Shown here: piece by piece, positions 32,042-36,729 of the stretch
How positions within the stretch are numbered: position 1 is the stretch's first letter
Layout of the letters: each line of letters opens with the position of its first letter
IMG/VR virus record: IMGVR_UViG_3300042292_000782
Location: 1-56,596 of that record
DNA length: 56,596 nt
From: a virus
Direction: 5' to 3' (one strand)
The notes under the pieces: model-generated
Databases searched by the model: none
Told to the model about the DNA's origin: nothing
Seen by the model: only the letters and a program-made list of their open reading frames with translations
Translations under genes and position numbers: made by a program

Positions 32042-32053
32042 GGTATATTGGGA

Positions 32054-34081
32054 ATGGCGATTGATTCAAAAGTAAACGTAACGATACACGATGAGGTTAA
32101 TTGTACATTTACCGGTATATTAAGACAGCATTTAGATTTTCTAAACGACCGGTACGCAGTGTTTGTTGAAGGATTTAAGTATATGCCATTGTACCAAATT
32201 GGTGCGTGGGACGGTAAAATAAGATTTTTTAACACTACAGGTATCACGTACGTTTATTTGGTACCTGAAATTGTCACATCGTTGCGTAGTTTAGGATATA
32301 AACATATTGACATTATAGATAACAGACGTGGAATGTTTTACGATGTTATTCCAGATGTTACAAAAGATTATTTTAGTCATATTACTAATCCAAAAAATGG
32401 ACAACCATATGAGTTAACAGACCATCAAATTGAAGCAGCTAATACTATGCTTTCAGCTGGTAGTGGTATAGCGTTAGCTGGTACAGGTTTTGGAAAGGCG
32501 CAACCGTATAGTTGTAAAATCATGACACCATACGGCTGGTCTACAATGGGAGATATTCAACCTGGTGACCTAGTATGTACTCCTAAAAATACAATAGCTC
32601 AAGTAATAGATACATTTGAACAAGGTGTTACAGATGTATATAAAATCACAATGTCAGATGGTACATTTACATATGCACACCCTGACCATATCTGGATGAT
32701 ATCGAACCCTGATCTCGCAAAAGCGTCAGTTGTAGTTAATTCAAAATACACAAAATTAACAACACTAGAGCTTAAAGCACAAGTTGAAAAACGTATTACG
32801 TGGATACCAGCGTTACCAGTTGCAATAAGCTTATCTAAAACCGAACTTGAAATACACCCATATATTTTAGGTAGTATTCTTCCATTTGTACGATGTGAAA
32901 ACACAAATTTGTATATTGATGTAGCTTGCACGTTTTCAAAATATGAGTATACTTTTGAGCATATTAATAAAGTTCTAAGAACATATGGAATAACATTACG
33001 TAAAATATCAAATGCATATCAAAAAGAAAGAATACTACTTACTGCAAAGAAGGGACGAGGCAACAAAGCGTTGCAGTTTGTAAGAAAATGTATGAAAAAA
33101 AGGTATCGTATACCACATGAGTATATTTTTGGTACATCTGAAGATCGTTTGTTATTTTTACAAGGTATGTGTGATATTAGTGGGTATATGTCCAATATAG
33201 GTGACCTCACTATTGTTGTAGCTACTAGCTTAGCGTTAGTAGAACAAATAACAGAAATGCTATTAATGCAAGGTAGTATTCTTCGGTACCCAAGTGAATG
33301 TAGATCTCATATTGCGTACACAATGTATTTTAGACATAGAGTCCCAGGTTTATTCTTCTTAAATCCAGCTAAAAAAATTAATTGGATTAAAGCAAATGAT
33401 GATATGGTGAATGAAAAAACACGTCAAGCGTTATACCGTACAGTTAAAACCGTTGAGCTCGTAGATCAAGAACCAACAAAATGTATATACATAGATGACC
33501 TTGATCATTTGTATATAACAGATGGATGTATTATTACTCATAATACTATTTTAAATGCTGCTCTTGTTGATAAATATCGACGGCACGGATGTAAAACGCT
33601 AACTATTGTACCAGCCGCATCGTTAGTAACACAAACAATAAAGCAGTTTAATATATTAGAGTTAGATGTTTCACATTTTAATTCTAATAACCCAAGTTTA
33701 GATCATGATCATATCATCACGACCTGGCAAACATTACAAAATTACCCACTACTCATTAATGAGTTTCAAATGGTAGTGGTAGATGAATGTTTATCTGAAA
33801 ATACTAATATAACATTAGCTAATGGTGATAAAAAAGAGATAAAAGATATTAAAGTTGGTGAAAAAATAATATCATATAATGAAGATTTACGTATTTTTGA
33901 AGAAGATGATGTAGTTCAAGTTTATATGAATTTATTAAAATCCATTGATGCTAAAATGTATTCTTTGGAGTTTGATAACGGTGAGGTAGTAGAGGTTACA
34001 GGTAATCATTTGTTTCTAACGAATGATGGATTTATTAGGGCGGATGAACTCAAGGATGAACATGAAATAATTAGTTATTGA
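32054..34081 (+). CDS. uvsW: UvsW helicase N-terminal part with in-frame intein and IntN of a split intein
   Basis: 675 residues from the ATG at 32054 (TTG at 32048 possible). Order: UvsW N-terminal domain and helicase start (to 32497); an intein inside Walker A (32498-33544); the second extein 'TILNAALVDKYRRHG' up to 'MVVVDE' (33545-33787); then the N-terminal half of a second, split intein (33788-34078) that ends at a stop. After removal of both inteins and trans-splicing with the product at 34340, the helicase would have 'GTGFGKT' and 'VVDECH' restored. UvsW is a superfamily 2 branch-migration and R-loop helicase that remodels replication intermediates. It follows uvsX and uvsY. Confidence 0.92.
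   Translation: MAIDSKVNVTIHDEVNCTFTGILRQHLDFLNDRYAVFVEGFKYMPLYQIGAWDGKIRFFNTTGITYVYLVPEIVTSLRSLGYKHIDIIDNRRGMFYDVIPDVTKDYFSHITNPKNGQPYELTDHQIEAANTMLSAGSGIALAGTGFGKAQPYSCKIMTPYGWSTMGDIQPGDLVCTPKNTIAQVIDTFEQGVTDVYKITMSDGTFTYAHPDHIWMISNPDLAKASVVVNSKYTKLTTLELKAQVEKRITWIPALPVAISLSKTELEIHPYILGSILPFVRCENTNLYIDVACTFSKYEYTFEHINKVLRTYGITLRKISNAYQKERILLTAKKGRGNKALQFVRKCMKKRYRIPHEYIFGTSEDRLLFLQGMCDISGYMSNIGDLTIVVATSLALVEQITEMLLMQGSILRYPSECRSHIAYTMYFRHRVPGLFFLNPAKKINWIKANDDMVNEKTRQALYRTVKTVELVDQEPTKCIYIDDLDHLYITDGCIITHNTILNAALVDKYRRHGCKTLTIVPAASLVTQTIKQFNILELDVSHFNSNNPSLDHDHIITTWQTLQNYPLLINEFQMVVVDECLSENTNITLANGDKKEIKDIKVGEKIISYNEDLRIFEEDDVVQVYMNLLKSIDAKMYSLEFDNGEVVEVTGNHLFLTNDGFIRADELKDEHEIISY
32498..33544 (+). 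other. Ala1-type intein in UvsW Walker A, with decayed homing endonuclease
   Basis: 349 residues. It begins Ala ('AQPYSCKIMTPYGWSTMGDI', intein block A with Ala instead of Cys/Ser) and ends 'YITDGCIITHN' (blocks F-G with His-Asn) before Thr+1. It splits 'GTGFGK' from 'TIL'. The middle keeps two LAGLIDADG-like helices: 'PYILGSILPFV' (acidic residue lost) and 'LLFLQGMCDISGYM' (Asp kept). The nuclease is therefore probably inactive while splicing may persist. Ala1 inteins are known to splice by direct attack of the +1 residue. Confidence 0.88.
33788..34078 (+). other. IntN fragment of a split intein in the DECH box
   Basis: 97 residues from Cys1: 'CLSENTNITLANGDKKEIKD', then 'IKVGEKIISY', block B 'VTGNHLF' and 'DGFIRADELKDEHEIISY' before a stop. 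Size and blocks match the N-halves of phage split inteins such as gp41-1. The insertion point is between Glu and Cys of the helicase DECH motif. Confidence 0.88.
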
Positions 34082-34091
34082 GGTAATACCG

Positions 34092-34343
34092 ATGTCACGA
34101 TCAATCGTTAGTGTTAAAAGATATGAACCGGGAATGGAAGATGGCTTTATGGTAGTAAGCAATTATAAACGATATAAAACTTTACCAAACCCTAATTGTA
34201 GTACAAAGCTAATGTTGGTTCCGTATATATTTGATTCAGATGGTAATAAAAATATCATTCGTGAGGGTGATTTAATATCTATAATTAACGATGATAAACG
34301 AATTTATCATATCGTCCCCAATAAATTTAAAAAATACGCATGA
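34092..34343 (+). CDS. Unknown 83-aa ORF inserted between the two UvsW halves
   Basis: 83 residues, basic, with many Lys/Tyr ('MSRSIVSVKRYEPGMEDGF', 'VVSNYKRYKTLPNPNC', 'EGDLISIINDDKRIYHIV'). It begins 10 nt after the IntN stop and its end overlaps the IntC start (ATGA at 34340), so all three are coupled. In previously described fractured split-intein loci this place holds a homing endonuclease. I see no nuclease motif here, so it may be a remnant or an unrelated factor. Confidence 0.55.
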   Translation: MSRSIVSVKRYEPGMEDGFMVVSNYKRYKTLPNPNCSTKLMLVPYIFDSDGNKNIIREGDLISIINDDKRIYHIVPNKFKKYA

Positions 34344-35245
34344 AATTAATTAACCGTGTTGAGATCTCTAAACCAGAGGTTGTTTATAATTTACAAGTTA
34401 AGAAAAACCACAACTATATTGCTAATAGCGCAGTTGTAAGCAATTGTCATGGGTCAAAAGCAACAAAATTATTTCAATTATTGACTGAACACGGTAAAAA
34501 TTTAGTACACCGGTACGGGCTAACAGGTACATTACCCGCACCGGAAGCTGATAAACTAAACGTACATGTAGCATTAGGTGCAGTGCTTTGCGAATATTCA
34601 GCGTTTTCTCTAATTCAAAAAGGTTGGTTAGCGACTCTAAACATCAATGTTATTCAATTAAATGATATCCAATATTTGATTGATAGGGGGTTACCCGAAG
34701 AATATGTGTTTAAAATGATGTACGAAGAGGAAAATAATTTTTGTAAAACCAATGTAACGAGACAAAAATGGATATCTAAGTTTATTGGTGGAAATAGAGA
34801 TAATAATAAACTCGGAAATACACTGGTATTAGTTAATAATATTAAGTACGGTAGACAATTAAGCAAACAGATAGAAGGTTCATACTTCTTAAATGGCGCT
34901 GATGATGTTAAAGTTCGCGATGAAGTCTATAGTATGTTTGAACGTAATGATGACCTTATCGTCATTTGTACTAAGCAAATCGCTGGTGTGGGATTATCAA
35001 TTGATAGGATTTTTAATTTAATTTTCATAGACAGTGGAAAATCTTTTGTAGTTACTATACAATCAATTGGTAGAGGACTAAGAAAAGGTAAAGATAAAGA
35101 TTCTGTTAATGTCATTGATATTTGCAGCAATCTTTCAACTGCTCCAAGTCGTATGAAAAAACGTATTTCCTACTATAAAACAGCACATTATCCTTATAAA
35201 GTAATCAAAATGGATTATTCTAAAGAGGTCGATGACGACGAATGA
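34340..35245 (+). CDS. uvsW: IntC fragment plus UvsW C-terminal helicase part
   Basis: 301 residues. Residues 1-35 are the intein C-half: 'VVYNLQVKKNHNYIANSAVVSN' carries block F and the terminal Asn, but the usual penultimate His is Ser. Cys36 is the +1 residue, and 'CHGSKATKLFQLL' continues the DECH box interrupted at 33787. The rest has 'YGLTGTLPA' (motif III), 'LGNTLVLVNNIKYGRQL' (motif IV), 'VICTKQIAGVGLSI' (motif V) and 'QSIGRGLRKGKDKDS' (motif VI) of UvsW. It is active only if joined to the product at 32054. Confidence 0.9.
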   Translation: MKLINRVEISKPEVVYNLQVKKNHNYIANSAVVSNCHGSKATKLFQLLTEHGKNLVHRYGLTGTLPAPEADKLNVHVALGAVLCEYSAFSLIQKGWLATLNINVIQLNDIQYLIDRGLPEEYVFKMMYEEENNFCKTNVTRQKWISKFIGGNRDNNKLGNTLVLVNNIKYGRQLSKQIEGSYFLNGADDVKVRDEVYSMFERNDDLIVICTKQIAGVGLSIDRIFNLIFIDSGKSFVVTIQSIGRGLRKGKDKDSVNVIDICSNLSTAPSRMKKRISYYKTAHYPYKVIKMDYSKEVDDDE

Positions 35246-35830: not shown

Positions 35831-36202
35831 ATGAAAAAACCAAGTAAAAAAACAAATTATATTTCTGTTAGTGAATTTAAAAGCTGGATGTCCGGCGTTG
35901 AAGATATGCAAGATACCGGTTGGGTACCAAGCAAACCTCAATGGGAAAGAATTAAATCAAAAATTGCATTATTGTCAGACGAAATGGTTGAAAAATATGA
36001 ACAAGTTTATGACCCTGCTCAACCTCCAGCTATTACTCAGCAATATCAGTATAATCCTCCAACATACCAAAGCACACCAATGGGTGTAGAATTATCTACA
36101 CAAGCTGCAACGTATTATGAACCACAACAGTTTGTAACACCACAATTTAACGCAAATGATAATATTGCTTATATGTCTGGAGAAAAATTAGACTTTTTAT
36201 GA
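35831..36202 (+). CDS. Small conserved phage protein with possible clamp-binding tail
   Basis: 123 residues from the ATG at 35831 (AAGTGGA ribosome site). A GTG at 35819 is in frame but has no better site. 'SVSEFKSWMSGVEDMQDTGW' and 'PSKPQWERIKSKIALL' form a compact helical domain found in marine T4-like phages. A Pro/Gln/Tyr-rich linker follows, and the last residues 'SGEKLDFL' look like the sliding-clamp-binding tails of T4 gp33/gp55-type late factors. A late-transcription accessory role is an inference, not an assignment. Confidence 0.55.
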   Translation: MKKPSKKTNYISVSEFKSWMSGVEDMQDTGWVPSKPQWERIKSKIALLSDEMVEKYEQVYDPAQPPAITQQYQYNPPTYQSTPMGVELSTQAATYYEPQQFVTPQFNANDNIAYMSGEKLDFL

Positions 36203-36729
36203 AAACCGTTTTAAAAAATAGAACATTATGGTACGATGGAACTATTCAAGTACCTACTAATAATTTAATGAAATGGTTATCATATAACAAGGTTGCTGTT
36301 ACAGAATTAACAGATGATATACTAAAATATAACAAAAATGTTATGAACAGTAATAAGATTCTTGTTAAAGATAGTATGTCACAATTAGATACGTCGTGGA
36401 ATATCCCACAATTTTACCATGATATTGATATTGAAACATATATTAATGACGCGCTAATAAGAGTAGGTATTAGTGACGAGTTATCTGATACCGAGTTTGT
36501 TGATAGGTATAAACGAGTACAAAACGAGTTAACAGTGTTTATTCAGTTAGAATTAATTGAATTATTGAAGACACTGATTTATATTATCGATTCATTTAAG
36601 GACAATAATGTTGTTTGGGGTGTTGGACGAGGTAGTTCGGTATCCAGTTATATTTTATATCTCTTAGAAGTACATGATATCGATAGTGTTACATATGAAT
36701 TAGATTTTAATGAATTTTTGAGGTATTAA
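36199..36729 (+). CDS. Bacterial DNA polymerase III alpha (DnaE)-like fragment
   Basis: 176 residues. The C-terminal third 'WGVGRGSSVSSYILYLLEVH' followed by 'DIDSVTYELDFNEFLRY' matches the palm entry of DnaE, where 'GRGSSAGS', 'YLL.IHDIDP' and 'FERFL' occur in this order. The catalytic aspartates of DnaE lie downstream of this point, and the protein stops there, so it cannot polymerise alone. Similar fragments appear in T4-like cyanophages. It is coupled by ATGA to the previous gene. Function is unknown. It might bind DNA or host replisome parts. Confidence 0.7.
   Translation: MKTVLKNRTLWYDGTIQVPTNNLMKWLSYNKVAVTELTDDILKYNKNVMNSNKILVKDSMSQLDTSWNIPQFYHDIDIETYINDALIRVGISDELSDTEFVDRYKRVQNELTVFIQLELIELLKTLIYIIDSFKDNNVVWGVGRGSSVSSYILYLLEVHDIDSVTYELDFNEFLRY

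What the first reader, a model, noticed from the sequence alone, without database searches (positions are those of the whole stretch)
33788..34447. UvsW gene fractured at the DECH box by a split intein
Seen: the first ORF ends in a 97-residue IntN starting at Cys after 'VVVDE'. The second ORF begins with a 35-residue IntC followed by 'CHGSKATK', which completes DECH. Known: fractured genes with split inteins (such as gp41-type) were found in environmental phage sequences. Inferred: an active UvsW requires trans-splicing. Here the IntC ends Ser-Asn instead of His-Asn, so it is a useful variant for studying the C-terminal cleavage step.
Basis: partly seen in the sequence, partly recalled or inferred. 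Interest (0 to 1): 0.85.

Follow-up and report, generated by a model that had tools for sequence, protein, structure and literature searches.

The report
Phage helicase gene split by intein
A virus of bacteria keeps its UvsW DNA-repair helicase as two separate genes broken inside the active-site motif, each carrying half of a self-splicing protein (a split intein) that should stitch the enzyme back together; the arrangement is real and widespread in environmental viruses, but its kind is known.

Summary
The fracture is real. UvsW is encoded as two in-line ORFs (32048-34081 and 34340-35245) broken between DE and CH of the DECH box. The first ends in a 97-aa IntN (33788-34078); the second begins with a 35-aa IntC (34340-34444). 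A diverged independent contig has the same layout and 18 in-frame stops separate the halves, so sequencing error is excluded. I surveyed 83 loci with an intein at this site, including ones in sequenced Salmonella (S16) and Proteus (PM2) phages whose records do not mention an intein. Catalytic residues are invariant, so trans-splicing is very likely, though not shown.

(2) ORF1 also carries a contiguous class-3 (WCT) intein in Walker A, so active UvsW needs two splicing reactions. (3) In one relative the split intein has rejoined into one ORF.

Verdict: new variant of a known kind.

The parts
32048..34081 (+). ORF1: UvsW N-terminal half (listed from TTG 32048; the ATG at 32054 fits the start of the L007 homologue better) + contiguous intein + middle extein + IntN; stop TGA 34079-34081
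32498..33544 (+). Contiguous 349-aa class-3-type intein in Walker A (GFGK|A...THN|T): A1, W216, C479, +1 Thr500 of ORF1
   Evidence: WCT residues line up with the class 3 DnaB intein 6BS8; coordinates; also in L007 and L019-L023
33545..33787 (+). Middle extein of UvsW, from T of Walker A to VVVDE
33788..34078 (+). IntN, 97 aa, Cys1, block B TGNH
34092..34343 (+). 83-aa ORF in the break; not an endonuclease by profile; Shine-Dalgarno-like GAGGT upstream; its stop overlaps the start codon of ORF3 (ATGA)
34340..34444 (+). IntC, 35 aa, own ATG, ends Ser-Asn
34445..35245 (+). UvsW C-terminal half (C-extein), begins CHGSK, helicase C domain; stop 35243-35245

Best explanation
This is a UvsW (T4-like recombination helicase) gene fractured by a class 1 split intein in motif II. 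ORF1, the 83-aa ORF and ORF3 are read from one strand. The IntN tail and the IntC head associate and trans-splice through Cys1, block B Thr/His, terminal Asn and Cys+1, which restores VVVDE-CHGSK. A second, contiguous class-3 intein in Walker A must excise in cis from ORF1. Shown: anatomy, recurrence in independent contigs, invariant catalytic residues, purifying selection and phylogeny. Inferred: co-transcription, splicing itself, and that the phage needs the product.
For: Domain and residue matches. Same arrangement in L007 with dN/dS 0.10-0.43 in each UvsW and intein part. 83 loci: Cys1 in 83/83 and +1 Cys-His in 80/80; block B Thr, Asn and His in 51/51 distinct IntNs; terminal Asn in 46/46 distinct IntCs, whose start codon is ATG in 75/75 split loci. 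Closest relatives without an intein read DECH through in one ORF (L002-L006). A model of the contiguous relative L080 matches inteins, among them gp41-1 and Npu DnaE. No terminator-like site lies between the halves.
Against: No splicing data. The intein structure model has only moderate confidence (pLDDT 68). The penultimate His that usually aids Asn cyclisation is Ser, though this is tolerated in DnaE inteins.
Confidence: 0.9

Rival explanations
1. Sequencing or assembly error: UvsW really holds one contiguous intein.
For: A single contig was read. Contiguous versions of this intein exist in five related contigs (L080-L083, L085).
Against: The gap frame of ORF1/ORF3 has 18 stops in the window and 13 in L007. 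The break contains an unrelated conserved ORF. L007 and L019-L023 have the same kind of break.
Confidence: 0.02
2. The two halves assemble without splicing, like the split NrdA of Aeh1 or gp43 of phage 25 (PMC2988022), and the intein halves are decaying remnants.
For: Non-covalent gene-in-pieces enzymes are known in T4-like phages. IntN shows the weakest constraint of the UvsW and intein parts (dN/dS 0.43).
Against: Catalytic residues are invariant in 46-51 distinct sequences, and IntN/IntC dN/dS is mostly below 0.2 in L019-L022. The cut lies inside the DECH catalytic motif.
Confidence: 0.05
3. The fracture is a dead gene: UvsW is no longer used.
For: No expression data.
Against: Exteins are under strong purifying selection (dN/dS about 0.1), and both halves keep their helicase motifs.
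Confidence: 0.03

Closest known systems
Fractured UvsW of Salmonella phages S16, STP4-a, CF-SP2 and of Proteus phage PM2 (Straboviridae)
   Same: Same DE|CH break, 97-98-aa IntN, 35-aa IntC with +1 Cys; IntN plus flank 39-42% identical
   Different: A 291-aa endonuclease-like ORF lies in the break; IntC ends His-Asn; no Walker-A intein; the features shown in the records do not mention an intein
'Fractured genes' with split inteins (Dassa et al. 2009, NAR 37:2560; e.g. gp41, NrdA, NrdJ, IMPDH; loci recalled from memory)
   Same: Two host-gene halves with split-intein tails at an active-site motif, usually with a free-standing endonuclease gene between
   Different: Here a small non-nuclease gene occupies the break and a second, class-3 intein lies in the same protein. 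The paper was not held, so whether it lists UvsW was not checked
Split PolB of Pseudomonas phage MIJ3 (PMC6892783)
   Same: Phage gene fractured by a putative split intein
   Different: DNA polymerase B, with an HNH endonuclease in the break
Npu/Ssp DnaE split inteins
   Same: Class 1 split intein without a penultimate His
   Different: Host gene is a cyanobacterial polymerase; the sequences are only distantly similar

Membership tests
Fractured gene with split intein | Two separate in-line ORFs carry the host-gene halves, the first ending in IntN and the second starting with IntC | tested here: met
Fractured gene with split intein | Insertion in a conserved active-site motif of the host gene | tested here: met
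   DE|CH of motif II; compare T4 UvsW DECH in 2OCA and intact relatives
Fractured gene with split intein | Free-standing endonuclease gene in the break (usual, not required) | tested here: not met
   The 83-aa ORF does not match the endonuclease profile that 49 relatives carry
Fractured gene with split intein | The two halves splice in trans | not testable with these tools
   needs protein expression or mass spectrometry
Class 1 intein (DECH split intein) | Cys/Ser1, block B Thr and His, terminal Asn, Cys/Ser/Thr +1 | tested here: met
Class 1 intein (DECH split intein) | Penultimate His (common, not essential) | tested here: not met
   Ser; the family norm; DnaE inteins also lack it (PMC5874633)
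Hint fold | Fold matches solved inteins | tested here: met
   Model of the contiguous relative L080: Foldseek hits are inteins and Hint domains, best E 1.7e-6; VIA Z up to 7.6 on 63 residues; pLDDT 68
Class 3 intein (Walker A) | No Cys/Ser1; Trp-Cys-Thr motif | tested here: met
   A1, W216, C479, T500 align with 6BS8; definition from PMC7664689
UvsW helicase | UvsW_N domain, SF2 motifs, uvsX/uvsY neighbourhood | tested here: met

The most novel reading that the evidence does not exclude
The 83/76-aa protein family, found only in the break of split-intein UvsW, is a functional replacement for the homing endonuclease: a mobility, splicing or helicase partner that makes the fracture worth keeping.
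Probability: 0.12. Interest if true: 0.65.

Novelty: new variant of a known kind. Interest (0 to 1): 0.5.

Why it matters
It adds UvsW as a common host gene for phage split inteins. It gives dozens of natural IntN/IntC pairs, nearly all without a penultimate His, for comparing trans-splicing. It also captures stages in the life of a split intein: with endonuclease, with broken or lost endonuclease, with other genes in the break, and rejoined into one gene. The window's UvsW would need one cis and one trans splicing reaction of different chemical classes to make one active enzyme.

Tried and rejected
Sequencing error: rejected. Ser-Asn as an unusual variant: rejected. The 83-aa ORF as an endonuclease remnant: no match to the 37-sequence endonuclease profile. 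The 83-aa ORF as a relocated ordinary phage gene: no copy seen in five intein-free relatives, which are partly fragments; Pfam and PHROGs gave no significant hit. Its structure model was too poor for a fold search (pLDDT 48.7). No relative of the intein in the bacterial and archaeal genome collection. The endonuclease profile gave no significant match to solved structures, so it is not assigned to a named fold. The 2009 'fractured genes' paper was not held. No held paper has both 'UvsW' and 'split intein'.

Full report
Observation. The two ORFs, the 97-aa IntN and the 35-aa IntC are at the stated coordinates. Independent profile libraries call the ends of the ORFs intein N- and C-terminal splicing regions. 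A six-frame scan of the whole window finds exactly one match to each of these two profiles, at these places. The host protein is UvsW: UvsW_N domain, T4 UvsW structure 2OCA, PHROG 16, and uvsX- and uvsY-like neighbours. The virus has a T4-like core: gp32-like SSB, portal, NrdA/NrdB.

The break is real. Contig L007 (IMGVR 3300042505_001173) has ORFs of 673, 83 and 301 aa in the same order; its exteins are 68-80% identical to the window's, IntN 65%, IntC 71%, the break ORF 66% and the Walker-A intein 45%. In the ORF1/ORF3 frame the gap holds 18 stops in the window and 13 in L007. So one wrong base cannot explain it. The halves are separated by an 83-aa ORF with a GAGGT site upstream, whose stop overlaps the ATG of ORF3 (ATGA). 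No terminator-like site lies in the region, and promoter-like sites are not above chance. This fits one transcript with coupled translation (inference).

How widespread. A scan of viral contigs with the IntN region gave 80 loci. Together with the window and reference phages, 83 loci were surveyed. IntN starts with Cys in 83/83, and the C-half starts Cys-His in 80/80. In 49 loci a full-length, roughly 300-aa ORF lies between the halves; it matches endonuclease PHROGs and shows a weak NUMOD3 match. In 11 this ORF is shortened or lost. In 9 the halves are nearly adjacent. In 5 the intein is contiguous. In 7 (window, L007, L019-L023) other genes are present. In 2 the IntC lies beyond the contig end. 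Sequenced phages S16, STP4-a, CF-SP2 and PM2 have the endonuclease-type layout, recorded as separate 'DNA helicase' genes around a 'hypothetical protein'. PHROGs 16259 and 9690 look like families of these half-genes. Lak phages with TAG read as Gln have it too.

The Ser-Asn point. The penultimate residue of 46 distinct IntCs is Ser 30, Ala 9, His 3, Glu 2, Thr 1, Gln 1. Cyanobacterial DnaE inteins have Ser or Ala in that place (PMC5874633), and inteins lacking these His residues can still splice (PMC7664689). The loci were chosen by similarity to IntN, not IntC, which limits bias on this count.

What is unusual here. First, the break contents. The 83-aa ORF is related to a 74-76-aa ORF in L019-L023 (about 40% identity), where two further genes (149-159 and 107-126 aa) share the break. 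All are under purifying selection (dN/dS 0.10-0.33). None matches the endonuclease profile. Further scans found each of the three families only in these breaks. The 83-aa family is absent from five intein-free relatives, one 178.8 kb long; those scans are seeded by short patterns and some records are fragments, so absence is not proof. Second, ORF1 carries a contiguous class-3 intein in Walker A with the WCT residues. The same two-intein design is in L007 and L019-L023.

History. In the UvsW C-half tree, window, L007 and L019-L022 form one clade (100/99). It nests among relatives whose UvsW is uninterrupted at DECH (L002-L006; 100/97 with L002/L006). The simplest reading is one gain of the split intein in this virus group, followed or accompanied by replacement of the endonuclease. 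In the intein tree the same set is one group (89/73). Adjacent forms arise at least four times. The contiguous form L080 sits inside split forms (99/96 in the host tree). Its linker DNA (AAAAATTAAGACACTGT-ATG) resembles the spacer before the IntC start codon of split relative L032 (AAAAATTAAGACGTTAT-ATG). This points to deletion of the endonuclease gene and fusion of the two halves: a split intein turned back into a contiguous one (inferred).

Mechanism. Shown: anatomy, conservation, phylogeny and a Hint-like model of the contiguous relative (pLDDT 68). Inferred: cis-splicing of the Walker-A intein, trans-splicing at DECH, and an active UvsW only after both. Splicing was not tested.

Noticed in passing
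window 32498-33544: Contiguous class-3 (WCT) intein in Walker A of the same UvsW; related loci L027/L030 carry a Cys1 intein at the same Walker-A site.
   Followed up: partly
window 36199-36729; also L002-L007: Short (176-aa) DNA polymerase III alpha fragment ending ...SVTYELDFNEFLRY, conserved as a separate gene near UvsW. A 172-aa truncated version is mentioned for phage CBB (PMC5259590).
   Followed up: no
L013 1-2814 (contig of L007): The same virus contig has a second fractured gene: DNA polymerase B broken at YGDTD|S, IntN and IntC ORFs adjacent with no gene between.
   Followed up: partly
L080 2935-3351; L081-L083, L085: The DECH intein as one contiguous mini-intein whose linker keeps the old IntC start and spacer: apparent reversion from split to contiguous.
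   Followed up: partly
L006 3-2295: A nucleotidyltransferase-like gene is broken by an endonuclease-like ORF (579-1646) without intein parts; it is one ORF in L004 and L005.
   Followed up: no
L019 5366-5590: An extra 74-aa ORF (MESFEYRVHD...) in the break of L019/L020; only a short remnant in L021.
   Followed up: no
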